Assembly (NCBI GenBank): GCA_022376925.1
Contig: JAIOJX010000032.1
Location: forward strand, 100,060,794 to 100,124,793
Origin: Tragulus kanchil
Taxonomy: Eukaryota; Chordata; Mammalia; Artiodactyla; Tragulidae
Length of the DNA stretch: 64,000 nucleotides
Reading direction: 5' to 3'
How positions within the stretch are numbered: the first letter of the stretch is position 1; each line of letters starts with the position of its first letter. Below the pieces are notes generated by a model, which had not been told where the DNA came from, made no database searches, and saw only the letters and a program-made list of their open reading frames with translations. Shown here piece after piece: positions 9,478-64,000 of the stretch. The translations under genes were made by a program, and so were the position numbers.

Positions 9478-10036
9478 CTGACAGCATATCCGCCAGAGCT
9501 CTTTCCAGCATTCCCTAAGTTCTGAATTCTCCTTTAAGAAGAAGCAGATTGAGGAAATCATTAATCTCTGACAGTTGTGTAGATATAATTAAAGATATAT
9601 GAATTTAAAAATACCTGCTCTCTCAAATTACTTCCTAAAAGAACAGGGAGGGGAAGAAAGAGTTCTGTTTAAAATGTCAGATACGGACACATTAGGCTGG
9701 GTAGTCAAAGCGCTGTGTGCCTGTCACTCATGAAAACTGACAATTAGGTCCATAAATAGATTTTACAGGCTTCCACACAAGAACGCACATTCTGCGCGTC
9801 TCATCTGCATAAAGATGAGCGTGGATGGCAGCCGCTGACTCATGGGAAGGGAGCAGGGTTTCGGAGGTGCTGAATGAGACATTCAAAGCAAATTCACTGT
9901 GCCTGGGGGCTGGGTGAGGGCCTGGTGGGAGGCGGGGAGCCCACTGATGCCAGGGAAGGGCATGTGGGAGCAGTCAGTCTCGGCTCTTCCACATGGCACC
10001 CACGCAAACATGGCTGGTCTCTTCATCTTTCCTGCT

Positions 10037-10183
10037 CATGCTCTGTCACTTCAGTCATGTCTGACTCTTTGTGACTCCATGGACTGCAGCCCTCCAGGCT
10101 TCTCTGCCCATGAAATTCTTCAGACAAGACTACTGGAGCGGGTTTCCATTTCCTTCTCCAGGGCATCTTTCCTGGTGCAGGTT
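10037..10183 (-). mobile_element. BovA SINE fragment (minus), first copy
   Basis: Reversed BovA landmarks are 'agtcatgtctgactctttgt', 'gactccatggactgcagccc' and 'ccttctccagggcatctttc'. The head is incomplete. Sequence to its right (about 10184-10320) looks like MIR, so the SINE probably entered a MIR. Confidence 0.85.
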
Positions 10184-11199
10184 TATTTTCCTATGTGCAA
10201 AATGAAATTGGCAGCAACCATCTCTTCTATTCCCATGCCCTACTTCTAAGGGTTGTCAGATCAAATGAGGTTAGAGAACTCCTTGGAAACTTGAAAAGAC
10301 CTGTACATACATACACTGTTGATTTGTTGTTACTAACTGGTTGATACTGACAGCTGAAGTATTGGCATACATACCAGGAAGAGATCAAGTGGGTGATCCG
10401 AGCGATGTGAAGACTAAGACATCAGAGAATCACAGAGAAATGCCAGAGAGTATGACTGAAGTTTGCTTCACCTTTGGGAATAGGAAATTCAGCCACACCC
10501 ACATGGATGAGAGCCTGGGATGTTGGGGAGCAGGATTGGGAGACCAGGAGACCTGCTGTCACTGTTGAGGCTGCATGCTCAGGGGTCCTCACGCTCCAGG
10601 GGTTCAGTCTCCCTCTCAATAAAATAGGTCATATGGGTCTATGACAGCATATCCGCCAGAGCTCTTTCCAGCATTCCCTAAGTTCTGAATTCTCCTTTAA
10701 GAAGAAGCAGATTGAGGAAATCATTAATCTCTGACAGTTGTGTAGATATAATTAAAGATATATGAATTTAAAAATACCTGCTCTCTCAAATTACTTCCTA
10801 AAAGAACAGGGAGGGGAAGAAAGAGTTCTGTTTAAAATGTCAGATACGGACACATTAGGCTGGGTAGTCAAAGCGCTGTGTGCCTGTCACTCATGAAAAC
10901 TGACAATTAGGTCCATAAATAGATTTTACAGGCTTCCACACAAGAACGCACATTCTGCGCGTCTCATCTGCATAAAGATGAGCGTGGATGGCAGCCGCTG
11001 ACTCATGGGAAGGGAGCAGGGTTTCGGAGGTGCTGAATGAGACATTCAAAGCAAATTCACTGTGCCTGGGGGCTGGGTGAGGGCCTGGTGGGAGGCGGGG
11101 AGCCCCCTGATGCCAGGGAAGGGCATGTGGGAGCAGCCAGTCTCGGCTCTTCCACATGGCACCCACGCAAACATGGCTGGTCTCTTCATCTTTCCTGCT

Positions 11200-11346
11200 C
11201 ATGCTCTGTCACTTCAGTCATGTCTGACTCTTTGTGACTCCATGGACTGTAGCCCTCCAGGCTTCTCTGCCCATGAAATTCTTCAGACAAGACTACTGGA
11301 GCGGGTTTCCATTTCCTTCTCCAGGGCATCTTTCCTGGTGCAGGTT
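11200..11346 (-). mobile_element. BovA SINE fragment (minus), duplicate copy
   Basis: Second copy of the 10037-10183 element, carried by duplication A, not an independent insertion: the flanks are identical too. It differs by a c-to-t change in the 'gactg-agcc' stretch. Confidence 0.85.
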
Positions 11347-11546
11347 TATTTTCCTATGTGCAAAATGAAATTGGCAGCAACCATCTCTTCTATTCCCATG
11401 CCCTACTTCTAAGGGTTGTCAGATCAAATGAGGTTAGAGAACTCCTTGGAAACTTGAAAAGACCTGTACATACATACACTGTTGATTTGTTGTTACTAAC
11501 TGGTTGATACTGACAGCTGAAGTATTGGCATACATACCAGGAAGAG

Positions 11547-13830
11547 ATCAAGTGGGTGATCCGAGCGATGTGAAGACTAAGACATCAGAGAATCACAGAG
11601 AAATGCCAGAGAGTATGACTGAAGTTTGCTTCACCTTTGGGAATAGGAAATTCAGCCACACCCACATGGATGAGAGCCTGGGATGTTGGGGAGCAGGATT
11701 GGGAGACCAGGAGACCTGCTGTCACTGTTGAGGCTGCATGCTCAGGGGTCCTCACGCTCCAGGGGTTCAGTCTCCCTCTCAATAAAATAGGTCATATGGG
11801 TCTATGGTTCCTTTCTCCACAGGATCGATGTGACATCAGGCAAAATCCCAGATATGCCTTGCAAATTATAATGCTAATGTAAGCTTCTGGATTGAAAATA
11901 AGATCATAATCAAATTGGAAAGGGGTGAGAGGGCGACCACTCATCTTCCATCATTCATTCATTCATTGACCTCATTAAATCAGCATACATTTATATCGTA
12001 TGTTTCATTTATATTGATTGAATGTTAAGTTCCACAAAGGCAGAAATATTTTCATGTTTATTGTTCATTGAAGTTTCCCAAGTGCCTAGAAGAGCCCCTA
12101 TGACCTAGTAGATGAATAGTATATATTTCAGGAGTTAGGTTTGTTAATGTGTTTGGTATGAGCATGCGAGCAGGTGCTGAGGTACTGAAAAGACTGTTGT
12201 CCTTCAGAGAGTTCATTGTTTGGTTGAGGGTGTGATAGAGGAGATGCATACAAACAGATGGGTCTAAAGCAAAATGCGCAGAGCAATGTGATATATACAG
12301 AACCTATATATATGTATACACACATACTATATACTTAGAATATTGAATTGGTATATGTACATGCATATATGTATATGAAGACATATTAAATTGGTCAAAA
12401 AGTTCTGATTTTTCCACAATACCTTACAGAAAATCCCTAAGGAACCTTTTCGCCAACATGATAGATGTAGAGATATAGAGAGGAAGTAAGAAGTGAATAC
12501 AGGAGATGTATACATACTTATAGTAAATATATAGGGAACAGATGGGGAGCATAAAAGAAGGTATTCTCCAAGAGTCTGTATTCCTGAGGTCTCCAGTTTG
12601 CCCCGTGTGCTGTGTTGTGTGGCAAAGGGGCTTCCCAAGTGGCACTACTGGCAAAGAACCTGCCTGCCAAGGCAAGGGATATAAAGAAATCAAGTGGGTG
12701 ATCCGAGCGATGTGAAGACTAAGACATCAGAGAATCACAGAGAAATGCCAGAGAGTATGACTGAAGTTTGCTTCACCTTTGGGAATAGGAAATTCAGCCA
12801 CACCCACATGGATGAGAGCCTGGGATGTTGGGGAGCAGGATTGGGAGACCAGGAGACCTGCTGTCACTGTTGAGGCTGCATGCTCAGGGGTCCTCACGCT
12901 CCAGGGGTTCAGTCTCCCTCTCAATAAAATAGGTCATATGGGTCTATGGTTCCTTTCTCCACAGGATCGATGTGACATCAGGCAAAATCCCAGATATGCC
13001 TTGCAAATTATAATGCTAATGTAAGCTTCCGGATTGAAAATAAGATCATAATCAAATTGGAAAGGGGTGAGAGGGCGACCACTCATCTTCCATCATTCAT
13101 TCATTCATTGACCTCATTAAATCAGCATACATTTATATCGTATGTTTCATTTATATTGATTGAATGTTAAGTTCCACAAAGGCAGAAATATTTTCATGTT
13201 TATTGTTCATTGAAGTTTCCCAAGTGCCTAGAAGAGCCCCTATGACCTAGTAGATGAATAGTATATATTTCAGGAGTTAGGTTTGTTAATGTGTTTGGTA
13301 TGAGCATGCGAGCAGGTGCTGAGGTACTGAAAAGACTGTTGTCCTTCAGAGAGTTCATTGTTTGGTTGAGGGTGTGATAGAGGAGATGCATACAAACAGA
13401 TGGGTCTAAAGCAAAATGCGCAGAGCAATGTGATATATACAGAACCTATATATATGTATACACACATACTATATACTTAGAATATTGAATTGGTATATGT
13501 ACATGCATATATGTATATGAAGACATATTAAATTGGTCAAAAAGTTCTGATTTTTCCACAATACCTTACAGAAAATCCCTAAGGAACCTTTTCGCCAACA
13601 TGATAGATGTAGAGATATAGAGAGGAAGTAAGAAGTGAATACAGGAGATGTATACATACTTATAGTAAATATATAGGGAACAGATGGGGAGCATAAAAGA
13701 AGGTATTCTCCAAGAGTCTGTATTCCTGAGGTCTCCAGTTTGCCCCGTGTGCTGTGTTGTGTGGCAAAGGGGCTTCCCAAGTGGCACTACTGGCAAAGAA
13801 CCTGCCTGCCAAGGCAAGGGATATAAAGAA
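11547..13830 (+). repeat. Direct duplication B (period 1142)
   Basis: Copy 1 spans about 11547-12688 and copy 2 about 12689-13830. Copy 1 ends inside a SINE that is complete only after copy 2, so the second copy holds the natural continuation. About 259 bp at its start exist three times (10384-10642, 11547-11805 and 12689-12947) because A and B overlap. It includes a (CATT)n tract near 11951 and 13093, and a TA-rich region near 12300-12380. Confidence 0.97.
12626..12688 (+). mobile_element. SINE head cut off by the duplication B junction
   Basis: The tRNA-like head 'ggggcttcccaagtggcac' begins but stops at 12688 where the second copy of unit B restarts. The same element is complete at 13768-13985. 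The truncation is therefore made by the junction, not by incomplete reverse transcription. Confidence 0.85.
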
Positions 13831-13985
13831 ATGTGGGTTCAATCTCTAGATTTGGAAGATCCCTGGAGAAGGGCATAGCAGCCCACTCCAGTATTCTTGC
13901 CTGGAGAATCCCGTGAACAGAGGAGCCTGACGGACTACAGTCCATGAGGTTGCCAAGAGTTGGAGATAACTGATAGGACTTAGCA
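13768..13985 (+). mobile_element. Bov-tA SINE, complete copy
   Basis: The head 'ggggcttcccaagtggcac' is followed by 'ggttcaatctctagatttgg', 'ccagtattcttgcctggaga' and 'gaacagaggagcctgacgga'. It begins in the end of duplication B copy 2 and runs on into unduplicated sequence. Confidence 0.9.
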
Positions 13986-15913: not shown

Positions 15914-16315
15914 TTGTCATGGGCAGAGTTTGGAGAATTCCTAGGAATATATTGGGCCCCAGGGTATAAAGAGACTAGTGAAGATGATTTAGATGATCCT
16001 CGAACCCCAGATGAGCTTCTGAGACCTAGAATTCGCCCCTTGGAAAGTGCTATTAGCACTGATGGAGAAGAAGACTGGGTGAATATGGTGATGCCTAAAG
16101 GAGGGATATGTATTAACCCAAAAGGCTGGAGGTTTGTGTCTAAAAGAAGCTATAGTCAAGTAAGCCAGGATTTGCCCTCTAGCAATGAGGAACTTATGAC
16201 TCACCCCATGCCGCTCCGACAGCACTCCGCTCGTAAGCGAAACCGAATCCAAAGATCTGATAGTGAATGGGTATTCTTCTGGTGCAGTGTACCTTGTGGG
16301 GTAAACACCTTATAA
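15914..16315 (+). pseudogene. Retrovirus-linked open frame of unknown function (about 133 codons)
   Basis: An uninterrupted frame of about 133 codons. It has an acidic patch at residues 20-28, proline and arginine through 29-42, a Trp/Gly-containing middle at 55-72, and a basic cluster at residues 107-114. I do not recognise the family. It lies upstream of a retroviral-looking U3-TATA-R-polyA region, so it may be the end of a 3' accessory, regulatory or env frame overlapping U3, as some retrovirus genera have. The first methionine may not be the real start. The frame is repeated at 17124-17502 by duplication C without its first few codons. An anonymous exon or a chance frame cannot be excluded. 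Confidence 0.4.
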
Positions 16316-16343
16316 CAATATTCCATTTGATTTTGTTTGCTTA

Positions 16344-16733
16344 AGAATAAGGTAGTTTATGGGCTTCCCCTGGTGGTCCAGTGGATAAGGACACCGCCTT
16401 GCAGTGCAAGGGGCGCCGGTTCGATCCCTGGCCTGGGAAGATCCCACGTGCCGCGGAGCGGCTGGACCAATGTGTCCAATTGCCGAGCCGGAGCTCTGGC
16501 GCGCATGCGCCCAGAGCCGGTGCTCTGCAGCGACAGATGCCACCGCGATGGGAGGCCCACAGGGGCCAAAAGAACAAAGACGGACGAAAATAGAGAAATA
16601 AAGGACCAATGGAAGTGGCCCACCCGCTCCCCTCCCTCCCCAACCTGACCCCCTCCCTCCCCAACCCGACCCTCGCCCAAAATAAATAAATAAATCTTTA
16701 AAAAAAAAAAAAAAAAAAGAATAAGGTAGTTTA
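16344..16733 (+). mobile_element. CHR-type SINE inserted in the retroviral region
   Basis: A full-length-looking element with A-box-like 'tggtggtccagtggataag' and B-box 'ggttcgatccc', then the GC-rich 'gagccggagctctggcgcgc' body and an A-tail near 16700-16717. The target-site duplication 'agaataaggtagttta' is at 16344-16359 and about 16718-16733. The 16-bp match shows insertion into existing LTR sequence. It is the most CpG-rich stretch of the window. Confidence 0.93.
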
Positions 16734-17118
16734 GTTTGTAGAATGAATAACCTACTCTGGTCTATCTCATGTGGAAAGTTTCATGTTATAGAATCCTTTT
16801 GAATAGGATTGACGTGATTTTATGGGCTTATTGCTAAAAAGCAGAAAAAAGTGGTGACACAAATAGCTGAGGCTAATATAAAGCGCCATTGTTTCTTCCC
16901 TTCTGAATTTTAATAATGTAAAAATAATGATGTACTGCGTATAATCTGATAAGACCAGCTAGGACACCACACCGACCAGCTAGGATACCACACCGACAGG
17001 CGTGTAGGCCATATAGAAGCAAAATTTTCTTTATATAAAGGGGGAGAAAGATTGTGAGGAGCTCACTCACAGAACTCAACTGCGCCTGAGGTGAGATTGA
17101 AGCTTCCCAGCTCTGGGG
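16734..17118 (+). mobile_element. LTR U3/R segment, first copy
   Basis: Continuation of the retroviral region after the SINE. It holds two tandem 21-bp units at 16954-16974 and 16975-16995 differing by one base ('gaccagctaggacaccacac' versus 'gaccagctaggataccacac'), a possible U3 enhancer repeat. A TATA box follows at about 17032-17040. The copy is cut off at the junction just after 'ctctggggta'. Confidence 0.6.
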
Positions 17119-17123
17119 TAAGA

Positions 17124-17502
17124 ATTCCTAGGAATATATTGGGCCCCAGGGTATAAAGAGACTAGTGAAGATGATTTAGATGATCCTCGAACCCCAGATG
17201 AGCTTCTGAGACCTAGAATTCGCCCCTTGGAAAGTGCTATTAGCACTGATGGAGAAGAAGACTGGGTGAATATGGTGATGCCTAAAGGAGGGATATGTAT
17301 TAACCCAAAAGGCTGGAGGTTTGTGTCTAAAAGAAGCTATAGTCAAGTAAGCCAGGATTTGCCCTCTAGCAATGAGGAACTTATGACTCACCCCATGCCG
17401 CTCCGACAGCACTCCGCTCGTAAGCGAAACCGAATCCAAAGATCTGATAGTGAATGGGTATTCTTCTGGTGCAGTGTACCTTGTGGGGTAAACACCTTAT
17501 AA
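17124..17502 (+). pseudogene. Duplicate of the retrovirus-linked open frame, 5' end missing
   Basis: Repeats the frame seen at 15914-16315 from about codon 7 onward, reaching the same stop. The beginning is replaced at the duplication C junction. It is not evidence for a second gene. Confidence 0.4.
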
Positions 17503-17530
17503 CAATATTCCATTTGATTTTGTTTGCTTA

Positions 17531-17910
17531 AGAATAAGGTAGTTTATGGGCTTCCCCTGGTGGTCCAGTGGATAAGGACACCGCCTTGCAGTGCAAGGCG
17601 CGTTCGATCCTGGCCTGGGAAGATCCCACGTGTCGCGGAGCGGCTGGACCAATGTGTCCAATGCCTGAGCTGGAGCTCTGGTGCGCATTCGCCCAGAGCC
17701 GGCGCTCTGGAACGACAGAGGCCAATGCGATGGGAGGCCCACAGGGGCCAAAAGAACAAAGACGGACGAAAATAGAAATAAAGGACCAATGGAAGTGGCC
17801 CACCGCTCCCTCCTCCCCAACCTGACCCCTCCCTCCCCAACCCGACCCTCGCCCAAAATAAATAAATAAATCTTTAAAAAAAAAAAAAACAGAATAAGGT
17901 AGTTTAGTTT
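17531..17910 (+). mobile_element. CHR-type SINE, duplicate copy with many differences
   Basis: The duplication C counterpart of the 16344-16733 element, in the same position with the same flanking 'ataaggtagttta' repeats. Unlike its flanks it carries many small deletions (for example 'caaggcgcgttcgatcctgg') and substitutions ('gcgcattcgcccagagccgg', 'ggaacgacagaggccaatgc'). The divergence is confined to the SINE, which suggests local mis-assembly or conversion by another SINE copy. Confidence 0.9.
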
Positions 17911-18204
17911 GTAGAATGAATAACCTACTCTGGTCTATCTCATGTGGAAAGTTTCATGTTATAGAATCCTTTTGAATAGGATTGACGTGATTTTATGGGC
18001 TTATTGCTAAAAAGCAGAAAAAAGTGGTGACACAAATAGCTGAGGCTAATATAAAGCGCCATTGTTTCTTCCCTTCTGAATTTTAATAATGTAAAAATAA
18101 TGATGTACTGCGTATAATCTGATAAGACCAGCTAGGACACCACACCGACCAGCTAGGATACCACACCGACAGGCGTGTAGGCCATATAGAAGCAAAATTT
18201 TCTT

Positions 18205-18213
18205 TATATAAAG
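18205..18213 (+). promoter_or_regulatory. TATA box of the LTR
   Basis: 'tatataaag' lies about 175 bases before the AATAAA signal, a spacing suitable for a retroviral U3/R promoter and poly(A) signal pair. The duplicate is at about 17032-17040. Activity cannot be judged from sequence. Confidence 0.6.
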
Positions 18214-18380
18214 GGGGAGAAAGATTGTGAGGGAGCTCACTCACAGAACTCAACTGCGCCTGAGGTGAGATTGAAGCTTCCCAGCTCTGGGGTAAGAAAC
18301 TTTGTTACTGTTGATTGAGTTCTGAACTTTTGAATTACTACTGCTTGTGCGTTAACTACTAACATTGCATTCTTTATGCT

Positions 18381-19921: not shown

Positions 19922-20235
19922 CTTGGAGTTTGCAAACTTGTCTCATTTTTTTAAAAAATCACCACACTCCTTTCTTGCTCAGAATAATAGCAAATGAGAA
20001 GAAGTGGAAAATAATGTAAAACCACAACTACATCAGCTGAAACCCAAGCCTGATTATTTCAAAGCTTTGAAAACCATCTTAGATGGTTTTTGATATCCTG
20101 GTCAGTTTTTATTCATTCAGATACCACAGCAGGGTTGCAGAAACCCCAAAATTATTGGCAGTAACAGGCAAGGGAAAGAATTTCTCTTAAAACTGGTTCA
20201 CCATCTTTTTATTACTTCTTGAGCACACAAGTTGA

Positions 20236-20452
20236 GTTTCCCAGGTAGCTCAGTGGTAAAGAATCCACCTGCCAAGCAGGAGACACAGGTTCAATCCCTA
20301 GGTAGGGAAGATCTCCTGGAGAGGGAAGTGACAACCCACTGCAGTATTCTTGCCTGGAGAAGCCCATGGACAGAGGTGCCTGGAGCACTACAGTCCATGG
20401 GGTTGCAAAGAGTCAGACAGGACCTAGTGACTACATAGCAGCAGCAGCACAC
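20236..20452 (+). mobile_element. Bov-tA SINE
   Basis: The head 'tttcccaggtagctcagtgg' is followed by 'ggttcaatccctaggtaggg', 'cagtattcttgcctggagaa' and 'atggacagaggtgcctggag', ending in an AGC triplet run (about 20440-20450). Such AGC runs are common at Bov-tA tails. Confidence 0.92.
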
Positions 20453-20779
20453 TGATTGCATTGGGACCCAAGTAAATTGCACATGACAGTCCTTTCATGT
20501 CCATGTCATTTACTCTGTGTGTTCTGTGAAGTTTCTCACTGTTACTCTGCTTTGCCTCTGCCCACTAGCAACCAGCAGGACCTCGAACCTCCTGAAACCT
20601 TCCCTGCCCTCTCCTCCTTTCGGTCTTTGCAGGTGCTCTCTGCTCAACCTCAGGCACTTATCTTCCTCTCTCAGGGGCCAACTCCTGCCTGCTGGTTAAG
20701 ACTCAGTTCGTTACCCCTCATTCTAGGATGTCCTGGTGGGCTGACTCCAGTTGGAATGAGGTAATTTTCTTCTCTGCAC

Positions 20780-20960
20780 TTCTAGAATCTCCTGCTTCCC
20801 TCCTACAAGCCTCACTTCACTGTTTCAGTAACCTCTTTATTGGTCTGCCTCCCATCTAAACTGTGAGTCTCCCAAGGACAAGGTCTCGTTCTGTGGGCAT
20901 TAGGTCCCCAAGTGATGCTTAGTATAGTTTGTTGGCTGAAAGTCTCATGAATCGGAAGAG
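20780..20960 (+). mobile_element. L2 LINE 3' end (three copies through duplications D and E)
   Basis: 'aactgtgagtctcccaagga' followed by 'caaggtctcgttctgtgggc' and a 'ttggctgaa' tail matches the usual L2 3' end layout. The same stretch recurs at about 21874-22054 and 22951-23130 only because duplications D and E overlap here. Confidence 0.6.
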
Positions 20961-21329
20961 ATCAGACAGCGTCCTGAATTGAGTGAGGACCCTGTACAGG
21001 GAAGGCAGAGATAGTCTTGGAGTTTGCAAACTTGTCTCATTTTTTTAAAAAATCACCACACTCCTTTCTTGCTCAGAATAATAGCAAATGAGAAGAAGTG
21101 GAAAATAATGTAAAACCACAACTACATCAGCTGAAACCCAAGCCTGATTATTTCAAAGCTTTGAAAACCATCTTAGATGGTTTTTGATATCCTGGTCAGT
21201 TTTTATTCATTCAGATACCACAGCAGGGTTGCAGAAACCCCAAAATTATTGGCAGTAACAGGCAAGGGAAAGAATTTCTCTTAAAACTGGTTCACCATCT
21301 TTTTATTACTTCTTGAGCACACAAGTTGA

Positions 21330-21546
21330 GTTTCCCAGGTAGCTCAGTGGTAAAGAATCCACCTGCCAAGCAGGAGACACAGGTTCAATCCCTAGGTAGG
21401 GAAGATCTCCTGGAGAGGGAAGTGACAACCCACTGCAGTATTCTTGCCTGGAGAAGCCCATGGACAGAGGTGCCTGGAGCACTACAGTCCATGGGGTTGC
21501 AAAGAGTCAGACAGGACCTAGTGACTACATAGCAGCAGCAGCACAC
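21330..21546 (+). mobile_element. Bov-tA SINE, duplicate copy
   Basis: Second copy of the 20236-20452 element, carried within duplication D at offset 1094. Not an independent insertion. Confidence 0.92.
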
Positions 21547-21724
21547 TGATTGCATTGGGACCCAAGTAAATTGCACATGACAGTCCTTTCATGTCCATGT
21601 CATTTACTCTGTGTGTTCTGTGAAGTTTCTCACTGTTACTCTGCTTTGCCTCTGCCCACTAGCAACCAGCAGGACCTCGAACCTCCTGAAACCTTCCCTG
21701 CCCTCTCCTCCTTTCGGTCTTTGC

Positions 21725-23884
21725 AGGTGCTCTCTGCTCAACCTCAGGCACTTATCTTCCTCTCTCAGGGGCCAACTCCTGCCTGCTGGTTAAGACTCAG
21801 TTCGTTACCCCTCATTCTAGGATGTCCTGGTGGGCTGACTCCAGTTGGAATGAGGTAATTTTCTTCTCTGCACTTCTAGAATCTCCTGCTTCCCTCCTAC
21901 AAGCCTCACTTCACTGTTTCAGTAACCTCTTTATTGGTCTGCCTCCCATCTAAACTGTGAGTCTCCCAAGGACAAGGTCTCGTTCTGTGGGCATTAGGTC
22001 CCCAAGTTTATGATTAGTATAGTTTGTTGGCTGAAAGTCTCATGAATCGGAAGAGATCAGACAGCGTCCTGAATTGAGTGAGGACCCTGTACAGGGAAGG
22101 CAGAGACTGAAGTTGACACAGGGACTTTCCACTTTTCACAAGAGCTACTGAATCACATCATCTAGTTGTCAATTACCTATGTCCTGCCACTCTCCAAGGT
22201 GCTTAATCAAACCCAATTGTTAGTCCTCACAGAAATCATCGAAGGACGTGAGAAAGTAGCATTCTATTTTTTCTTGTTGGTAGCATAAGGAAATGAGACA
22301 TCAAAGGTCTGAACCTGTCTATACATTTGGACGTTCATACAGTTAACTCCTCAGCTCCTGGGGGAGTGGATTCAGAATCCACTCCCCTCCCTGAACCTGC
22401 TCCCATTCTCTCGCTGACACCATCCTGACACACCTCCCCTATCTCATCCTACCTCCCACCTTCCACTCCCATCTATTTATGATCCTCTATGTCACATCCA
22501 GGTTCACGGATGATTTTAGAAGTGGAGAGCGAGCAGTTTAACTAGAATCAACAGGATTTGGATCATTTGCGTAATTGGGCTAGCAGATGGTAAATGTAGT
22601 TCAAAGTACAAAAATGTAGAATAATTACAAGGGGAAAAAGTAACGCAGTTATGGATGAGGAAAACGATTTGGGAGAAAAGCTCATTGAAATCATTATCTG
22701 AATGTGTTAGAAACGAAGGACAAATAGCCCCGCTCTGGATAATAGAGACAGAGGTTGCAGAGTGGCCTGGTGATGCCCCAGCTGCTTGGAATGCAGGAGG
22801 GAGGACACTGAGGTGCTCTCTGCTCAACTTATCTTCCTCTCTCAGGGGCCAACTCCTGCCTGCTGGTTAAGACTCAGTTCGTTACCCCTCATTCTAGGAT
22901 GTCCTGGTGGGCTGACTCCAGTTGGAATGAGGTAATTTTCTTCTCTGCACTTCTAGAATCTCCTGCTTCCCTCCTACAAGCCTCACTTCACTGTTTCAGT
23001 AACCTCTTTATTGGTCTGCCTCCCATCTAAACTGTGAGTCTCCCAAGGACAAGGTCTCGTTCTGTGGGCATTAGGTCCCCAAGTGATGCTTAGTATAGTT
23101 TGTTGGCTGAAAGTCTCATGAATCGGAAGAGATCAGACAGCGTCCTGAATTGAGTGAGGACCCTGTACAGGGAAGGCAGAGACTGAAGTTGACACAGGGA
23201 CTTTCCACTTTTCACAAGAGCTACTGAATCACATCATCTAGTTGTCAATTACCTATGTCCTGCCACTCTCCAAGGTGCTTAATCAAACCCAATTGTTAGT
23301 CCTCACAGAAATCATCGAAGGACGTGAGAAAGTAGCATTCTATTTTTCTTGTTGGTAGCATAAGGAAATGAGACATCAAAGGTCTGAACCTGTCTATACA
23401 TTTGGACGTTCATACAGTTAACTCCTCAGCTCCTGGGGGAGTGGATTCAGAATCCACTCCCCTCCCTGAACCTGCTCCCATTCTCTCGCTGACACCATCC
23501 TGACACACCTCCCCTATCTCATCCTACCTCCCACCTTCCACTCCCATCTATTTATGATCCTCTATGTCACATCCAGGTTCACGGATGATTTTAGAAGTGG
23601 AGAGCGAGCAGTTTAACTAGAATCAACAGGATTTGGATCATTTGCGTAATTGGGCTAGCAGATGGTAAATGTAGTTCAAAGTACAAAAATGTAGAATAAT
23701 TACAAGGGGAAAAAGTAACGCAGTTATGGATGAGGAAAACGATTTGGGAGAAAAGCTCATTGAAATCATTATCTGAATGTGTTAGAAATGAAGGACAAAT
23801 AGCCCCGCTCTGGATAATAGAGACAGAGGTTGCAGAGTGGCCTGGTGATGCCCCAGCTGCTTGGAATGCAGGAGGGAGGACACT
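21725..23884 (+). repeat. Direct duplication E (period 1086 falling to 1075)
   Basis: Copy 1 spans about 21725-22809 and copy 2 about 22811-23884. Copy 2 lacks 9 bases close to its start ('ctgctcaacttatcttcc' where copy 1 has an extra 'cctcaggca' portion) and one T of a homopolymer further on. After copy 2 the sequence continues naturally ('cacttgctgaggctagg'). Confidence 0.97.
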
Positions 23885-24244: not shown

Positions 24245-24690
24245 AATATGACAGGCTGAATAATGACCCCCAAACATATCCATGTTGTAATCCTAAGAGC
24301 CTGTGAATGTTACTGCGTATGAGACTTTGTAGATGTAATTAAATTACAGACCTGGTGTTAGGGAGATTGCCCTGGATTACCCAAGTGTGGCCTCAGTACA
24401 GTCACAAGTGTCTTTTAAGGAAGGAAATTGAGGGAGATTGACATAGAAGAAGATTACGCGACCACAGAGGCAGAGAGAGGAGCGATGGGGCCATAAGCCC
24501 AGGGATGGCAGTGACCATCAGAAGCTGGCAGGGACATGACTAGGATTCTCTCCTAGAGCCTCCAGAGGGAGCACAGTGTTTCCAGTACTTTGGTTTCAGC
24601 CCAGTGAAACTGATTGTAGACTTCTCACTTCTGTAACTCTGAGACAATTAATATCTGTTGTATTAAGACAGTTTGGGGTAAATTTTTATA
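24245..24690 (+). mobile_element. MLT1-like MaLR LTR
   Basis: 'caggctgaataatgaccccc', 'tttgtagatgtaattaaatt', 'ctcctagagcctccagaggg' and 'cagcccagtgaaactgattg' follow the order of a plus-strand MaLR/MLT1 LTR. The duplication F boundary at 24534 cuts through it, so its last third appears again at 25614-25770. Confidence 0.75.
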
Positions 24691-24744
24691 TCCTCCACAA
24701 GAAGTTGATATAAGTATAGAGAAAAAAACCACCAACACAAGAAA

Positions 24745-24870
24745 GATCTGGATCAAGTCTGATTTTCACTTCAGTGGACCCCTGGGTCGTCTATCTTGAT
24801 CTCATTTTCCTTGTCTTTAAAATGGGATAATAATGTTTTCTGAATGTGGATTGTTGGGAATGCATAAAAA
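24745..24870 (+). mobile_element. MIR remnant interrupted by Bov-tA
   Basis: 'tcattttccttgtctttaaa' and 'atgggataataatgttttct' match the MIR core, which is then broken by the Bov-tA at 24877. The duplicate lies at about 25825-25950. Confidence 0.6.
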
Positions 24871-24876
24871 GATATA

Positions 24877-25094
24877 TTGCTGTGCTGTGCTTAGTCACTC
24901 AGTCATGTCTGACTCTTTGCGACCCCATGGACTGTGACCTGCCAGGCTCCTCTGTCCGTGGGGATTTTCCAGGCAAGAATGCTGGAGTCAGTTGCCATGC
25001 CCTCCTCCAGGAGGTCTTCCCCATCCAGGGATTGAACCTAAGTCTCCTGCTTTGCAGGTGAATTCTTTAGCATCAGAGCCACCAGGGAAGCCCC
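24877..25094 (-). mobile_element. Bov-tA SINE (minus)
   Basis: 'agtcatgtctgactctttgc', 'gaccccatggactgtgacct', 'ttttccaggcaagaatgctg' and 'gagccaccagggaagcccc' are reversed Bov-tA landmarks. Weak target-site duplication: 'aaaagatat' left and 'aaagagata' right. Confidence 0.93.
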
Positions 25095-25956
25095 AAAGAG
25101 ATAATACAAGTACCCTATCCACCATAGACACAGTAAAAAAAAAAAAAAAAAAAAAAAAATACTAGGCATAGTTCTGAGTTTTAAATCAGGCCATATTTAG
25201 CCAGCAGCCAGATTTCCAGAGATGCTGATAGGGCCCATTGTTATAGGTTGGAGGGTAGAGTCAGTGGTATGGAGGCAGTCAGCAGTGTGAATGACACCTT
25301 GGAGGCAGTAAGGGGCTCCAGTCTAGCTCCTGTCCTGGAGAAGGTTGGAGTGTTAGGAAAAGCAATCAAGCAGAACCCATGAGCTGGCACCATGATCAAG
25401 GGGCGGGGGTACCTCATGCTCAGAAAAGGCTTTGAGGTAGGGAACTCTTGCTGGGGACTCTTGATCCCAGATGGCCCTGCCAGCGAAAGAACCTCAAGTA
25501 AGACTGCTGGGCCCAGAGCCTAGGCTTCTAAGGACAAATAGTGCCAAGCCCTAAGATTTTGAAGTCAATGATATAAATCCTACTTTCATCAGAATGCCCA
25601 AACAAAACCAGGTACATGACTAGGATTCTCTCCTAGAGCCTCCAGAGGGAGCACAGTGTTTCCAGTACTTTGGTTTCAGCCCAGTGAAACTGATTGTAGA
25701 CTTCTCACTTCTGTAACTCTGAGACAATTAATATCTGTTGTATTAAGACAGTTTGGGGTAAATTTTTATATCCTCCACAAGAAGTTGATATAAGTATAGA
25801 GAAAAAAACCACCAACACAAGAAAGATCTGGATCAAGTCTGATTTTCACTTCAGTGGACCCCTGGGTCGTCTATCTTGATCTCATTTTCCTTGTCTTTAA
25901 AATGGGATAATAATGTTTTCTGAATGTGGATTGTTGGGAATGCATAAAAAGATATA

Positions 25957-48115: not shown

Positions 48116-48935
48116 TGCCTTGTCTCCCTCATCATACTCTCCACTCCTTAGGGAAGTGCCTTTTCCTTTTCTTTTGTCCTTCTTTCTCCCCCTCCCAGGT
48201 CTTACCACAGTGCGGAGATTTAAGAAATGCTCAGCAAATAATAATATAGTGTTTCTCATGTCTTTTCTACCACCAATTAATAAGTGGATGTCTTATGAAA
48301 TGCATGGGCCCGTCCTCCTCATGGTATTCTATCCTATGATCATCATTCTTGCCTTTCATTAGTTAAACCATAGCTATAGAGGCAGTGCTAGCTAGTAGAA
48401 GCACCAATGGGCAAGCAGTCAGAAGGCCTGAGTTTCGATCTTGGTGCCTCTATTATTTGTGATGTTGGTCTAGGCTTCCCTGATGGCTCAGATGGTAAAG
48501 AATTTGCCCTCCGTGCAGGAGATCTGGGTTCGATTCCTGGGTCAGGAGATCCCCTGGAGAAAGGAATTGCTACCCACTTAAGTATTCTTGCCTGGAGAAT
48601 TCCGTGAATAGAGGAGCCTGGTGGGCTACAATTCATGGGGTCACAAAGAGTTGGACATGACTTAGCCACTAACATTGTCGCTGGTCTGGTTACAATCTTC
48701 TGAGCCTCGCTTTTCCTGATCTGTAATGATTCTGACATTCTAGGACTCATGGGTTCCATCAGATGATGTGTGAAAATTGCTTAAAAGTTCAGGTGTTTTT
48801 TCTGAATCCCTTCCACTGTGTATGACACATTGTAACAATTGATACATGCTTGCAATAAAACCATTGTGTGTCATATGCGTTGTATGAGATTCACATTTGC
48901 CTTTTTGGTGTATTCTTTTTTGATTTGCTACATTT

Positions 48936-49226
48936 CAACTTTTCTTTTTAAATTGTGGCCTATTTATTGTTTATTTATTTATTTTCATCTATCCTTATTC
49001 TGTGGCCTGTGTGGGCCTCCCATGACAGTGGCCTCTTTTGCTGCAGAACACCCGGCTCTGGGTGCATGCACTCCAGATTACTGGCTCGCAGTTGGACACA
49101 CCGGTCCAAGCACTCCACTGCACGTGGGATCTTCCTGGGCCAGGGATCGAACCGGTGCCCATTGCACTGCAAGGCAGACTCTTGACCTACTGGATCACCA
49201 GAGAAGCCCCAACTTGTTTTTATAAA
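48936..49226 (-). mobile_element. CHR-type SINE (minus), duplicate copy
   Basis: Duplication M counterpart of 47825-48115 at offset 1111. The sequence is essentially the same, in contrast to the diverged SINE pair of duplication C. Confidence 0.9.
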
Positions 49227-49398
49227 TGCCTTGTCTCCCTCATCATACTCTCCACTCCTTAGGGAAGTGCCTTTTCCTTTTCTTTTGTCCTTCTTTCTCC
49301 CCCTCCCAGGTCTTACCACAGTGCGGAGATTTAAGAAATGCTCAGCAAATAATAATATAGTGTTTCTCATGTCTTTTCTACCACCAATTAATAAGTGT

Positions 49399-54055: not shown

Positions 54056-54061
54056 GACATT

Positions 54062-55588: not shown

Positions 55589-57757
55589 TGCTATTCCTTT
55601 ACGCCTCCCACCCTCTGTTCCTTCCCCACAATGTCCACTGTCCATGTCTGTCTTTCCGTCGCTTCATTGCGTGTGCCATCATCACCATGCTACTAGATTC
55701 CATATATATGTGTTAATATACTGTATTTGTCCTTCTCTTTCTGACTGACTTTTGATGATACGTTCTAGATCCAGCCACCTCATTAGGGCTGATTCTTCTG
55801 CATTTCTCTTTACAGCTATGTAGTATTCCATTGTATATATGTACTAGAGCTTTTGTATCCATTCGTTCATCGATGGGCATCTAGGTTGCTTCCATGTTCT
55901 AGCTATTGTATAGAGAACTGCAATGAACATTGGGGTACAGGTGCTTCTTTCAGATTTGATTTCATCAGGGTATAAGCCTAAGAGTGGGATTGCTGGGTTG
56001 TATGGTGCTTCTGTTTTGAGTTTTGTAAGAAATCTCCATCCTGTCTTCCATAGAAGCTGTATCAATTTACATTCCCATCAGCAATGCCAGAGTGTTCCCT
56101 TTTCTCTGCACCCTCTCCAGCATTTATTGTCTGTCAGTTTGTGGATGACGGCCATTCTGACAGGTGTGAGGTGATATCTCATTGTAGTTTTGATTTGCAT
56201 TTCTCTAATTATAAGTGAAGTTGAGCATCGTTTCATGTGCTTTTGGGCCATCTGTATGTTGTCTTTGGAGAGGTGTCTGTTTAGGTCCTTTTCCCATTTT
56301 TTGATTGGGTTGTTCATTTTTCCAGTGCTGAGTTGTCTGAGTTGCTTGTAGATTTTGGAGATTAATTCTTTGTCTGTTGTTTCATTTGCTATGATTTTCT
56401 CCCATTCTCTGGGGTGTCTGTTCAGCTTTTTTGTGATTTCTTTTGCTGTACAAAAGCTTTTAAGTTTCATTAGGTCCCACATGTTTATTTGTCTTTTTAG
56501 TTCTGCTATTCTAGTAGGTGGGTCAGAGAAGATCTTGCTTTGATTGCTGTCCTTGAGGGTTTTGCCTATATTCTCCTCTAAGAGTTTGATGGTTTCTGGC
56601 CTTACACTTAAGTCTTTAATCCATTTTGAGTTGATCTTTGTGCATGGTGTCAGGGAATGTTCCAACTTTTTGTGCTATTCCTTTACGCCTCCCACCCTCT
56701 GTTCCTTCCCCACAATGTCCACTGTCCATGTCTGTCTTTCCGTTGCTTCATTGCGTGTGCCATCATCACCATCCTACTAGATTCCATATATATGTGTTAA
56801 TATACTGTATTTGTCCTTCTCTTTCTGACTGACTTTTGATGATACGTTCTAGATCCAGCCACCTCATTAGGGCTGATTCTTCTGCATTTCTCTTTACAGC
56901 TATGTAGTATTCCATTGTATATATGTACTAGAGCTTTTGTATCCATTCGTTCATCGATGGGCATCTAGGTTGCTTCCATGTTCTAGCTATTGTATAGAGA
57001 ACTGCAATGAACATTGGGGTACAGGTGCTTCTTTCAGATTTGATTTCATCAGGGTATAAGCCTAAGAGTGGGATTGCTGGGTTGTATGGTGCTTCTGTTT
57101 TGAGTTTTGTAAGAAATCTCCATCCTGTCTTCCATAGAAGCTGTATCAATTTACATTCCCATCAGCAATGCCAGAGTGTTCCCTTTCTCTGCACCCTCTC
57201 CAGCATTTATTGTCTGTCAGTTTGTGGATGACGGCCATTCTGACAGGTGTGAGGTGATATCTCATTGTAGTTTTGATTTGCATTTCTCTAATTATAAGTG
57301 AAGTTGAGCATCGTTTCATGTGCTTTTGGGCCATCTGTATGTTGTCTTTGGAGAGGTGTCTGTTTAGGTCCTTTTCCCATTTTTTGATTGGGTTGTTCAT
57401 TTTTCCAGTGCTGAGTTGTCTGAGTTGCTTGTAGATTTTGGAGATTAATTCTTTGTCTGTTGTTTCATTTGCTATGATTTTCTCCCATTCTCTGGGGTGT
57501 CTGTTCAGCTTTTTTGTGATTTCTTTTGCTGTACAAAAGCTTTTAAGTTTCATTAGGTCCCACATGTTTATTTGTCTTTTTAGTTCTGCTATTCTAGTAG
57601 GTGGGTCAGAGAAGATCTTGCTTTGATTGCTGTCCTTGAGGGTTTTGCCTATATTCTCCTCTAAGAGTTTGATGGTTTCTGGCCTTACACTTAAGTCTTT
57701 AATCCATTTTGAGTTGATCTTTGTGCATGGTGTCAGGGAATGTTCCAACTTCATTTT
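55589..57757 (+). repeat. Direct duplication N (period 1084), inside L1
   Basis: Copy 1 spans about 55589-56672 and copy 2 about 56673-57757. Differences include c/t ('ttccgtcgcttc' versus 'ttccgttgcttc'), g/c ('accatgctac' versus 'accatcctac') and one lost T ('gttcccttttctctg' versus 'gttccctttctctg'). The natural continuation ('aacttcatttttttttgcat') follows copy 2 only. Confidence 0.97.
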
Positions 57758-59464: not shown

Positions 59465-61624
59465 GGTAGCGGTTGTAGAATCAATATTTGTGGAATAAAC
59501 GACTGACTGACTGGATGGGTGAATAAACTAATGAAGAAATCACGACAAATATTATTATCTTTTATGCTCATTTTAACGGGTTTGTGGGGGAAAAAAGAAC
59601 AGAAAAAGGAAAATGGCAGCTGATATATGATATAGTGCCTTTGACAAGTACATTAGCTGTGATGGTGTGGGAGTGATAATAGATTTGTTACTCTTGGGTC
59701 ATCAAACCCCTTTACAGTTAGCCTTATTATTGGTATTGGGTGTTGCATAAAAACTTGGGGTGTTGATCAGCCTGTGAATTACATGTGCATATGGGGTATG
59801 CTTGGCAGTGACCACCAAGGGTGGTAAGAGAACTCAGAATTCAGAGGCTTCCCTTAGACCTCGGGTTAACTATGGCTTCCCTTAGATCTCAGTTTAAGTT
59901 GCTAGGGGGCTTCCCAGCTGGCACAGTGCTAAAAAATTTACCTGTCAATGCAGAAGATGCAAGAGACGAGGGGTTTGATCCTTGTGTTGAAAAGGTCCCT
60001 GGAGGAGGAAGTGGCAACTCTCCAGTATTCTTGCCTGAGGAATCTCATAAGACAGAGGAGCCTGGCAGGCTGTAGCCTATGGGGTTACAAGGAGTTGGAC
60101 ACGACTGAGCGACTAACACTTTTAAGCTGCTAAGAGCCAAAATCTAGGGAAGTCAGACAAAATAGAGAAACTCTACAGGTTAGGGGAGATGGTGTCCAGA
60201 CCCACTGAGTGAGAAACTCAGGAGAAACAGTCAAGGAATAGGGAGCTTGATACCTGATATCAGAGTGAAGGTTGGATGAGTCACAAACAAATGCTTCATT
60301 CTAGGATCCCACATGTGAGGGTCTTCATCCTAAAACTTTCAGTTTGCCTCCATTTTTTTTCCCAAAAAGAGTTTGTTCTTGAAGGTGGGTGATCTAGATG
60401 GATAGCGAGAGTAAGTTTTAGAATGAGACTGAAGTGAATTTGAGAGCTGGTGCCATCATTTAGTACTTTCATATTCTGGAATAGATTCTTTCTTTGAATC
60501 CTGATTTTTCTGTCTTTAGTATGTAGTTAAGAACAGTGCCTAGGGTAGCGGTTGTAGAATCAATATTTGTGGAATAAACGACTGACTGACTGGATGGGTG
60601 AATAAACTAATGAAGAAATCACGACAAATATTATTATCTTTTATGCTCATTTTAACGGGTTTGTGGGGGAAAAAAGAACAGAAAAAGGAAAATGGCAGCT
60701 GATATATGATATAGTGCCTTTGACAAGTACATTAGCTGTGATGGTGTGGGAGTGATAATAGATTTGTTACTCTTGGGTCATCAAACCCCTTTACAGTTAG
60801 CCTTATTATTGGTATTGGGTGTTGCATAAAAACTTGGGGTGTTGATCAGCCTGTGAATTACATGTGCATATGGGGTATGCTTGGCAGTGACCACCAAGGG
60901 TGGTAAGAGAACTCAGAATTCAGAGGCTTCCCTTAGACCTCGGGTTAACTATGGCTTCCCTTAGATCTCAGTTTAAGTTGCTAGGGGGCTTCCCAGCTGG
61001 CACAGTGCTAAAAAATTTACCTGTCAATGCAGAAGATGCAAGAGACGAGGGGTTTGATCCTTGTGTTGAAAAGGTCCCCTGGAGGAGGAAGTGGCAACTC
61101 TCTCCAGTATTCTTGCCTGAGAAATTCATAAGACAGAGGAGCCTGGCAGGCTGTAGCCTATGGGGTTACAAGGAGTTGGACACGACTGAGCGACTAACAC
61201 TTTTAAGCTGCTAAGAGCCAAAATCTAGGGAAGTCAGACAAAATAGAGAAACTCTACAGGTTAGGGGAGATGGTGTCCAGACCCACTGAGTGAGAAACTC
61301 AGGAGAAACAGTCAAGGAATAGGGAGCTTGATACCTGATATCAGAGTGAAGGTTGGATGAGTCACAAACAAATGCTTCATTCTAGGATCCCACATGTGAG
61401 GGTCTTCATTCTAAAACTTTCAGTTTGCCTCCATTTTTTTTCCCAAAAAGAGTTTGTTCTTGAAGGTGGGTGATCTAGATGGATAGCGAGAGTAAGTTTT
61501 AGAATGAGACTGAAGTGAATTTGAGAGCTGGTGCCATCATTTAGTACTTTCATATTCTGGAATAGATTCTTTCTTTGAATCCTGATTTTTCTGTCTTTAG
61601 TATGTAGTTAAGAACAGTGCCTAC
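59465..61624 (+). repeat. Direct duplication O (period 1079)
   Basis: Copy 1 spans about 59465-60543 and copy 2 about 60544-61624. Differences include one C in a run ('aaggtccctgg' versus 'aaggtcccctgg') and small indels in the Bov-tA ('gcctgaggaatctcataaga' versus 'gcctgagaaattcataagac'). The natural continuation ('gtgcctacttctcggtgttg') follows copy 2. Confidence 0.97.
59893..60132 (+). mobile_element. Bov-tA SINE with target-site duplication (duplicate at 60972-61212)
   Basis: 'gggggcttcccagctggcac', 'agtattcttgcctgagga', 'agaggagcctggcaggctgt' and 'ttggacacgactgagcgact'. Target-site duplication 'tttaagttgcta' (59893-59904) and 'tttaagctgcta' (60121-60132). Duplication O carries a second copy with the same flanks. 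Confidence 0.93.
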
Positions 61625-61720
61625 TTCTCGGTGTTGCTATGAGGACTGGATCAGGTGACAGGCGTGCAAAGCACTGGCTCTGTGTCTGGCATGTGGCAAG
61701 TTATCAGGAAATACTTGTTT
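61600..61720 (+). mobile_element. MIR-like remnant (duplicate at about 62802-62922)
   Basis: 'cggtgttgctatgaggactg', 'gcgtgcaaagcactggctct' and 'tggcatgtggcaagttatca' match the 3' half of MIR on the plus strand. Confidence 0.65.
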
Positions 61721-61744
61721 TATTTTTCTCATTCCTAGTCAGTC

Positions 61745-61880
61745 ATTGATTATTCACTGAGCACCCAGAGTTTGGTAGGCACTGTGCCTGATTCAGGTGA
61801 TAGAGACATGAAAGAGATGTCCACTCTCCCCTGAAGCTCACGGCTGAGTGGAAGGAGCAGTAAAAACAGGAAAGGACAAC
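61745..61880 (-). mobile_element. L2-like fragment (minus; duplicate at about 62947-63082)
   Basis: 'attcactgagcacccagagt', 'ggtaggcactgtgcctgatt' and 'gatagagacatgaaagagat' are reversed L2 3' phrases. Confidence 0.65.
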
Positions 61881-61922
61881 ATAAAATAGTATGGTGGTAT
61901 CTGAAATATACTGGAAATTTAT

Positions 61923-61942
61923 ACACACACACACACACACAC
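61923..61942. repeat. AC dinucleotide microsatellite (second copy 63125-63146)
   Basis: Ten AC units here and eleven in the duplicate copy. A one-unit difference is what two alleles, or slippage, would give. Confidence 0.9.
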
Positions 61943-62274
61943 ATATATAGTATGAACTGGGGGTATCAAAAAAAAGAAATGCTCAGTTCTGTCTTGGGGA
62001 GTCAGATAAGCTCCCCAGATAGGCTTATCCATTTCACTCTAGCTCAGCTATTTTGAAGATACCTGTCAAGATCCCCAGTTTGGGGAAAGAAAATATTCTC
62101 TTATATTTTGAACGTTGTTTTTAAAGGTTTTCATTCAACATTTGAGTGGTAGGAACCAGGAGCACTTGATTGATGGTCCGTTGAAAATAGCAAGGTCTCA
62201 CCTGTGTCGATTATGTGTGGCAAGTGATAATAATAATAGTTAATATGTGTGGCAACTAAGACTATGACTAATAA

Positions 62275-62530
62275 TTACTAATTCATCTTTATGTGACAAG
62301 TGTTTTTCTAAGCCCTCTCATTCATCATATCAATTAATTCTTCTCAGATTCCCATAATATCCATTTTATTATTCCATAACACTTTCATTATCCCCATTTT
62401 ACAAAGGAGGAAAGTGGAGCTTACAGAAGTCAGGTGATTTCTCCAAGGGCACCTGTTAATCATTTACAGAGTTGTTTGTGACTTGAACCCATTTTTGTCT
62501 GGCTTCAGAGCTCATGCTCTACAAGAGAAC
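62275..62530 (-). mobile_element. MIR (minus; duplicate at about 63476-63731)
   Basis: 'tttcattatccccattttac', 'aaaggaggaaagtggagctt', 'ctccaagggcacctgttaat' and 'gacttgaacccatttttgtc' are the reversed MIR core and tail. Confidence 0.8.
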
Positions 62531-64000
62531 AGGCTGCCACCAGAAATCTGTTTATTTAGAAAAGAGAAATAGCATGGCTGAGTTTAACTTCAGTTCCACA
62601 TTAGGATATTGGAAATGATGTTTCTACATAATCATTTAACTGTAATGATCCTATTTCCTTATCAGGATGGCATTCTTTTTGAAGATCTGATGAGTAAGTT
62701 TTAGAATGAGACTGAAGTGAATTTGAGAGCTGGTGCCATCATTTAGTACTTTCATATTCTGGAATAGATTCTTTCTTTGAATCCTGATTTTTCTGTCTTT
62801 AGTATGTAGTTAAGAACAGTGCCTACTTCTCGGTGTTGCTATGAGGACTGGATCAGGTGACAGGCGTGCAAAGCACTGGCTCTGTGTCTGGCATGTGGCA
62901 AGTTATCAGGAAATACTTGTTTTATTTTTCTCATTCCTAGTCAGTCATTGATTATTCACTGAGCACCCAGAGTTTGGTAGGCACTGTGCCTGATTCAGGT
63001 GATAGAGACATGAAAGAGATGTCCACTCTCCCCTGAAGCTCACGGCTGAGTGGAAGGAGCAGTAAAAACAGGAAAGGACAACATAAAATAGTATGGTGGT
63101 ATCTGAAATATACTGGAAATTTATACACACACACACACACACACACATATATAGTATGAACTGGGGGTATCAAAAAAAAGAAATGCTCAGTTCTGTCTTG
63201 GGGAGTCAGATAAGCTCCCCAGATAGGCTTATCCATTTCACTCTAGCTCAGCTATTTTGAAGATACCTGTCAAGATCCCCAGTTTGGGGAAAGAAAATAT
63301 TCTCTTATATTTTGAACGTTGTTTTAAAGGTTTTCATTCAACATTTGAGTGGTAGGAACCAGGAGCACTTGATTGATGGTCCGTTGAAAATAGCAAGGTC
63401 TCACCTGTGTCGATTATGTGTGGCAAGTGATAATAATAATAGTTAATATGTGTGGCAACTAAGACTATGACTAATAATTACTAATTCATCTTTATGTGAC
63501 AAGTGTTTTTCTAAGCCCTCTCATTCATCATATCAATTAATTCTTCTCAGATTCCCATAATATCCATTTTATTATTCCATAACACTTTCATTATCCCCAT
63601 TTTACAAAGGAGGAAAGTGGAGCTTACAGAAGTCAGGTGATTTCTCCAAGGGCACCTGTTAATCATTTACAGAGTTGTTTGTGACTTGAACCCATTTTTG
63701 TCTGGCTTCAGAGCTCATGCTCTACAAGAGAACAGGCTGCCACCAGAAATCTGTTTATTTAGAAAAGAGAAATAGCATGGCTGAGTTTAACTTCAGTTCC
63801 ACATTAGGATATTGAAAATGATGTTTCTACATAATCATTTAACTGTAATGATCCTATTTCCTTATCAGGATGGCATTCTTTTTGAAGATCTGATGAGTAC
63901 ATTTGATATCTTTGTTGTCATTTAATTCACTTAACAACTGGAGCAGCTGTTTTACTTTTTTTTTTCTGAAGGAGTGGTAGTTGTCATCTTTGGGGGAAAT

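What the first reader, a model, noticed from the sequence alone, without database searches (positions are those of the whole stretch)
9478..63898. Sixteen consecutive head-to-tail duplications of about 1.1 kb, each of a different sequence
Directly visible: sixteen direct duplications with periods 1163, 1142, 1187, 1094, about 1077, 1080, 1150, 1112, 1140, about 1106, 1117, 1141, 1111, 1084, 1079 and 1202. The units share no sequence with each other except where neighbours overlap, and are unrelated to repeat class: they cut through SINEs, LTRs, L1 and unique DNA alike. Only length is conserved. About 18 kb of the window is redundant. I know of no genomic process that tandemly duplicates successive unrelated 1.1-kb blocks. 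Contig ends overlapping by about 1.1 kb and joined without merging would give exactly this. A real structure would be extraordinary, so it needs testing before anything else here is interpreted.
Basis: partly seen in the sequence, partly recalled or inferred. Interest (0 to 1): 0.92.

Follow-up and report, generated by a model that had tools for sequence, protein, structure and literature searches.

The report
Genome-wide assembly error, unmerged overlapping pieces
The repeated 1.1-kb blocks are real in the file but almost certainly not in the animal: the assembly was built from overlapping pieces laid end to end without removing the overlaps, so roughly a quarter of the sampled sequence is counted twice.

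Summary
In detail: all sixteen head-to-tail duplications are in the window (shifts 1077-1202 bp; 17,805 of 64,000 bases are second copies). They are not local: 17 of 17 delivered 10-kb loci from 13 of the assembly's 32 contigs carry them. Over 52 complete junctions the shift is 1112 +/- 40 bp (1022-1202), median identity 99.65%. In all, 64,065 of 234,000 bases examined are second copies. Conserved exons are doubled in place: 12 of 15 hits to the RNA-polymerase largest-subunit domain have a twin 1072-1177 bases away, at each of three loci, which a living animal could hardly tolerate. Differences between copies pile up at both ends of the overlap (114 of 226 in the outer fifth), as in consensus pieces with poor ends. 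I add a likely source: floors at 1022 bp (overlap) and 1811 bp (piece) fit the default node geometry of a fuzzy-Bruijn-graph assembler such as wtdbg2 (1024 and 1792). That geometry is recalled, and a 256-bp periodicity test was not significant. No raw reads or second assembly were available. Not a biological feature; low interest except as a warning.

The parts
9479..11806 (+). junction 1: copies 9479-10643 and 10642-11806
   Evidence: 99.7% identical, shift 1163
11542..13832 (+). junction 2: copies 11542-12690 and 12684-13832
   Evidence: 99.8% identical, shift 1142
15934..18298 (+). junction 3: copies 15934-17124 and 17121-18298
   Evidence: 97.7% identical, shift 1187; 21 of its 22 differences lie at positions 476-783 of the copy
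19922..22106 (+). junction 4: copies 19922-21011 and 21016-22106
   Evidence: 99.7% identical, shift 1094
21750..23884 (+). junction 5: copies 21750-22809 and 22827-23884; the 17 bases between them nearly repeat the sequence left of copy 1
   Evidence: 99.5% identical, shift 1077
24529..26672 (+). junction 6: copies 24529-25597 and 25609-26672
   Evidence: 99.3% identical, shift 1080
27582..29868 (+). junction 7: copies 27582-28718 and 28731-29868
   Evidence: 99.6% identical, shift 1149
30933..33103 (+). junction 8: copies 30933-31991 and 32048-33103; 56 bases between, partly resembling the sequence right of copy 2
   Evidence: 99.2% identical, shift 1115
36113..38379 (+). junction 9: copies 36113-37238 and 37253-38379
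   Evidence: 99.8% identical, shift 1140
40785..42973 (+). junction 10: copies 40785-41868 and 41895-42973; 26 bases between, a degraded copy of the sequence left of copy 1
   Evidence: 99.4% identical, shift 1110
42714..44948 (+). junction 11: copies 42714-43831 and 43832-44948
   Evidence: 99.5% identical, shift 1118
44631..46907 (+). junction 12: copies 44631-45765 and 45782-46907
   Evidence: 98.8% identical, shift 1151
47196..49397 (+). junction 13: copies 47196-48286 and 48308-49397
   Evidence: 99.9% identical, shift 1112
55589..57751 (+). junction 14: copies 55589-56668 and 56673-57751
   Evidence: 99.7% identical, shift 1084
59465..61623 (+). junction 15: copies 59465-60542 and 60544-61623
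   Evidence: 99.4% identical, shift 1079
61490..63899 (+). junction 16: copies 61490-62696 and 62692-63899
   Evidence: 99.7% identical, shift 1202

Best explanation
These are false duplications made by the assembly pipeline. The sequence consists of consensus pieces whose ends overlap their neighbours by about 1.1 kb; at each junction here the pieces were written one after the other and the overlap was never collapsed, so the overlap appears twice, head to tail. Shown: the doubling, its presence in every sampled locus, its narrow length, the concentration of differences at the ends, the doubled conserved exons. Inferred: that the cause is unmerged overlap. Inferred with less confidence (about 0.5): that the pieces are the 'edges' of a fuzzy-Bruijn-graph layout (wtdbg2/Redbean), which share one node of 4 x 256 = 1024 bases with each neighbour, and that the consensus step failed to join them; scaffolding into 16 large sequences would then have carried the error through. 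The stated confidence is for the artefact, not for the assembler.
For: Same pattern in 17 of 17 delivered 10-kb loci on 13 contigs. 52 complete junctions (of 61; the other 9 are cut by an end of the stretch read): shift mean 1112, sd 40, range 1022-1202; median identity 99.65%. 64,065 of 234,000 bases are second copies. Conserved exons doubled at the same distance: 12 of 15, 10 of 19 and 79 of 127 hits have a partner at 950-1300 bp; 55 such pairs, against 3 same-exon pairs at any other distance under 20 kb, those at 2100-2304 bp, twice the unit. Differences between copies: 58 and 56 of 226 in the first and last tenth of the overlap, 7-21 in each middle tenth. For 8 of 26 junctions with 10 or more stray bases between copies, those bases resemble the outer flank at p <= 0.05, as for the noisy end of an overlapping piece. 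Assembler geometry: shortest shift 1022 (1024 expected); shortest step between junctions 1811, with 5 of 39 steps at 1811-1825 (1792 expected for two 1024-base nodes overlapping by at most 256).
Against: No raw reads, read depth or second assembly was available. 18 of 26 stray junction segments do not significantly resemble the flanks. For the wtdbg2 part: a 256-base quantisation of piece lengths was sought and was not significant (best period 262; 19% of null sets as strong). One exon pair lies at 969 bp, below the floor. The geometry is recalled, since the wtdbg2 paper is not held, and mean overlap (1098) exceeds 1024 by 7%, which needs net-deletion reads or jitter of node ends. Ordinary wtdbg2 output is not known to me to look like this; the passages seen of a paper that includes a wtdbg2 assembly mention no such fault (PMC9668749). 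The window has no junction in its first 10.6 kb and one step of 8.4 kb, so either some joins were merged or some pieces are long; steps were measured mostly within 10-kb stretches, which favours short ones.
Confidence: 0.98

Rival explanations
1. Short contigs from a short-read or linked-read assembly overlap at their ends and were scaffolded or gap-filled without noticing the overlap.
Against: No N lies at any of the 16 window junctions (0 N in 64 kb). Such overlaps would be expected to vary with repeats and k-mer size rather than hold at 1112 +/- 40 with a floor near 1022, and a sharp minimum step of 1811 looks like a design parameter. Whether junctions favour repeats was not tested.
Confidence: 0.2
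2. Contigs were cut into chunks overlapping by about 1 kb for parallel polishing and pasted back without trimming.
For: A narrow overlap near 1 kb fits a chunk-overlap setting.
Against: Chunks would have one fixed length; the 39 steps measured range from 1811 to 8365. A fixed overlap would also hardly vary between 1022 and 1202.
Confidence: 0.03
3. The two copies are the two parental haplotypes placed side by side (heterotype false duplication).
For: Copies differ at 226 places in 57,028 aligned bases, 99 of them substitutions.
Against: Haplotype duplications have no reason to be 1.1 kb each; differences are concentrated at the ends rather than spread, and 75 of 127 indels are homopolymer changes; some pairs are 100% identical.
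Confidence: 0.01
4. A real genomic process tandemly duplicates unrelated 1.1-kb blocks throughout the genome.
For: The duplications are in the sequence and cover unrelated DNA.
Against: It would have to act about once per 3.8 kb (61 in 234 kb), within 1022-1202 bp at all 52 complete junctions, mostly at over 98% identity, and would double exons of the catalytic subunits of RNA polymerases in place. Differences would be spread along the unit, not piled at its ends.
Confidence: 0.001

Closest known systems
Homotype false duplication at contig boundaries, as described by the Vertebrate Genomes Project (PMC8081667, passages seen)
   Same: Near-identical head-to-tail copies at piece boundaries from overlapping sequence that was not collapsed; that paper mentions a case caused by a FALCON bug.
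   Different: There the duplicate is often about one read long with a gap between; here it is about 1.1 kb, the copies lie within 80 bases of each other with no N at the window's junctions, and it recurs about once per 3.8 kb in all that was sampled.
False exon gains and false gene gains from duplication errors (PMC9516828, passages seen)
   Same: Conserved exons appear twice inside one gene.
   Different: There 4-24% of coding genes are affected in the older assemblies; here 12 of 15, 10 of 19 and 79 of 127 hits of three families have a twin.
Edge/node layout of the fuzzy-Bruijn-graph assembler wtdbg2 (recalled; paper not held)
   Same: Neighbouring units share one 1024-base node; nodes may overlap by up to 256 bases, so the shortest unit is 1792.
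   Different: In normal output the consensus step merges the shared node; here it would have been written twice. Piece lengths are not significantly quantised at 256.

Membership tests
Homotype false duplication at piece boundaries | near-identical copies from one locus, head to tail and adjacent | tested here: met
   52 complete junctions, median identity 99.65%, distance between copies -49 to +80 bases
Homotype false duplication at piece boundaries | not confined to one locus or one sequence family | tested here: met
   17 of 17 loci; cross matches of 300 bp or more between blocks only among neighbours; repeat class as such not tested
Homotype false duplication at piece boundaries | consensus quality falls towards piece ends | tested here: met
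   114 of 226 differences in the outer two tenths of the overlap; the way BLAST sets alignment ends may add to this
Homotype false duplication at piece boundaries | read depth per copy below normal, k-mer copy number above expectation | not testable with these tools
   no reads held
wtdbg2-type layout concatenated unmerged | overlap of at least one node (1024 bases) | tested here: met
   minimum shift 1022 in 52 junctions; but one exon pair at 969; the expected value is recalled
wtdbg2-type layout concatenated unmerged | shortest piece about 1792 bases (two nodes overlapping by at most 256) | tested here: met
   shortest of 39 steps 1811, five at 1811-1825; overlaps between neighbouring blocks at most 362, which exceeds 256; the expected values are recalled
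wtdbg2-type layout concatenated unmerged | piece lengths in multiples of about 256 bases | tested here: inconclusive
   best period 262, reached by 19% of null sets, n = 39
wtdbg2-type layout concatenated unmerged | assembly records name that assembler | not testable with these tools
Genuine tandem duplication | compatible with intact essential genes | tested here: not met
   exons matching RNA polymerase largest-subunit (C26, C6, C17) and second-subunit (C3, C8) domains are doubled in place; the two second-subunit hits on C26 are single

The most novel reading that the evidence does not exclude
The internal layout of a fuzzy-Bruijn-graph assembly was printed into a chromosome-scale genome: most graph edges kept both copies of their shared 1-kb node, so the assembler's node map, and two independent consensus readings of more than a quarter of the sequence, can be read straight from the finished file. 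A biological duplication process is excluded for practical purposes (about 0.001).
Probability: 0.5. Interest if true: 0.25.

Novelty: not a real feature. Interest (0 to 1): 0.1.

Why it matters
Biologically it is nothing, but it is a serious warning. If the sampled rate (64,065 of 234,000 bases) holds, about 27% of this 3.17-Gb assembly is false duplication and the sequence behind it is nearer 2.3 Gb. Gene models, exon counts, gene-family expansions, segmental duplications, repeat content, read mapping and variant calls taken from it would be widely wrong, and automated scans will keep reporting spurious tandem duplications from it.

Tried and rejected
Chunked polishing was rejected because piece lengths vary from 1811 to 8365. 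Side-by-side haplotypes were rejected because differences lie at the ends and lengths are nearly fixed. A real duplication process was rejected on density and doubled essential exons. A 256-base periodicity in piece length was sought and was not significant. Paper searches for guesses among mammals with few chromosomes (recalled karyotypes) led nowhere: mouse-deer and eland with wtdbg2 gave no paper holding all terms; looser searches for giraffe and mouse-deer listed no such genome paper among the 12 and 15 rows shown. Searches for a description of the wtdbg2 geometry (listings only) and passages of two benchmark papers (PMC10673639; PMC8178825) did not show it. A search for wtpoa-cns with false duplication listed two papers; passages of one (PMC9668749, 12 of 20 places) describe no such fault. 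One search was used as a listing to find the false-duplication papers. Rfam on the window gave 0 matches at gathering. Pfam on the 10 ORFs I chose of 50 listed gave one match, below its cut-off. Tandem Repeats Finder cannot see 1.1-kb periods (limit 500).

Full report
A self-comparison of the window shows sixteen direct, head-to-tail duplications with shifts from 1077 to 1202 bases and identities from 97.7 to 99.9%, at the coordinates given. Twenty shuffled versions of the window gave no match of 300 bases or more, and there are no inverted matches at the same word size. Of 17 cross matches among 52 duplicated blocks, the four of 300 bases or more are all between neighbours. Second copies make up 17,805 of 64,000 bases.

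The pattern is not a property of this locus. The window lies at G000:C2:100060794-100124793 of a 3,167,203,957-base assembly in 32 sequences. I asked for twenty 10-kb stretches on other sequences and positions; 17 were delivered, three positions being beyond short contigs. All 17 of 17, from 13 contigs, contain the same kind of duplication, 45 in all at about 1.1 kb plus three second-order matches at about twice that. Taking the window and the 17 loci together, 61 duplications were found, one per 3.8 kb; 52 are complete and 9 are cut by an end of the stretch read and were left out of the length statistics. The 52 have shift mean 1112, sd 40, minimum 1022, maximum 1202; median identity 99.65%; spacing between the copies from -49 to +80 bases. 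That script kept only shifts of 900-1350; the unfiltered list for the 17 loci shows no others of 300 bases or more except the three second-order ones. Second copies are 64,065 of 234,000 bases. Scaled to the assembly this is about 0.87 Gb, leaving roughly 2.3 Gb; that scaling is an inference from 234 kb.

Essential genes are affected, which argues against a real duplication. A search with the Pfam domain RNA_pol_Rpb1_2 gave 15 hits on three contigs, evidently the largest-subunit genes of the nuclear RNA polymerases (the gene assignment is inferred); 12 of the 15 have a twin of the same exon 1072-1177 bases away. RNA_pol_Rpb2_6 gave 19 hits, 10 with such a twin, none of these on C26, where its two hits are single. 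The SNF2 domain gave 127 hits, 79 with a twin; there 124 of 169 candidates were scored, so counts are lower bounds, and pseudogenes are not separated from genes. Over the three searches 55 same-exon pairs lie 950-1300 bases apart (mean 1110, sd 39, 969 to 1189) and only three lie at any other distance under 20 kb, at 2100, 2201 and 2304 bases, twice the unit. An animal in which catalytic-subunit exons of several RNA polymerases are doubled in place is not credible; an assembly in which they are is.

The anatomy of the junctions points the same way. Comparing copies over 57,028 aligned bases gives 226 differences: 56 transitions, 43 transversions and 127 indels, 75 of the indels being homopolymer changes. 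They are not spread evenly: 58 and 56 fall in the first and last tenth of the overlap, against 7 to 21 in each middle tenth. This is what two consensus pieces with poorly supported ends would show: copy 1 is bad at its right end, copy 2 at its left end; the way BLAST sets alignment ends may add to it. Where 10 or more stray bases lie between the copies, 8 of 26 such segments resemble the sequence just outside the pair at p <= 0.05 (1.3 expected); the other 18 do not. The clearest in the window are at junctions 5 and 10. One junction (15934-18298) has 21 of its 22 differences in a stretch of about 300 bases in the middle and is an exception.

What made it? Two numbers are informative. The shift has a floor near 1022 (1022, 1025 and 1025 are the lowest), and the distance between successive junctions has a sharp floor at 1811, five of 39 lying at 1811-1825 and none below, with the longest at 8365 (most were measured within 10-kb stretches, which favours short ones). 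From memory, wtdbg2 builds its graph from nodes of 1024 bases (four bins of 256), lets neighbouring nodes overlap by at most 256, and writes its layout as edges that include both end nodes, so adjacent edges overlap by one node and the shortest edge is 1792; its consensus program then has to merge them. Pieces concatenated without that merging would look as observed. This is recalled; the paper is not held and searches for a description failed. Results that weaken it: the expected 256-base quantisation of piece length is not significant (best period 262; 19% of null sets as strong), overlaps between neighbouring blocks reach 362 rather than 256, and one exon pair lies at 969. I give the specific assembler about 0.5 and the general artefact 0.98.

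Sixteen of the 32 sequences exceed 73 Mb; the other sixteen are at most 10.7 Mb, three with round lengths of 200,000, 242,000 and 225,000, as Hi-C scaffolding debris often has (recalled). The species was not identified and 'ruminant' was not tested.

Known counterparts exist. The Vertebrate Genomes Project describes homotype false duplications at contig boundaries, including tandem copies from overlapping ends and a case due to a software bug (PMC8081667, passages), and a later paper describes false exon and gene gains from such errors (PMC9516828, passages). The present case differs in density and in the narrow 1.1-kb size. It is not a biological feature.

Noticed in passing
G000 contigs C14 (200,000), C16 (242,000), C25 (225,000): Small contigs of exactly round length beside 16 sequences over 73 Mb, suggesting scaffolding debris cut at round positions.
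   Followed up: no
window 15934-18298: The one pair with low identity (97.7%): 21 of its 22 differences lie within about 300 bases that by eye are G+C-rich and hold a 21-base tandem repeat, so consensus accuracy there is locally poor.
   Followed up: partly
window 1-9478 and 49398-55588: Two stretches without any duplication, one over 9 kb and one over 6 kb; either long pieces or joins that were merged correctly.
   Followed up: no
window 2027-2229 and 16376-16580: A dispersed pair of about 205 bases at 83% identity, presumably an interspersed repeat, unrelated to the 1.1-kb duplications.
   Followed up: no
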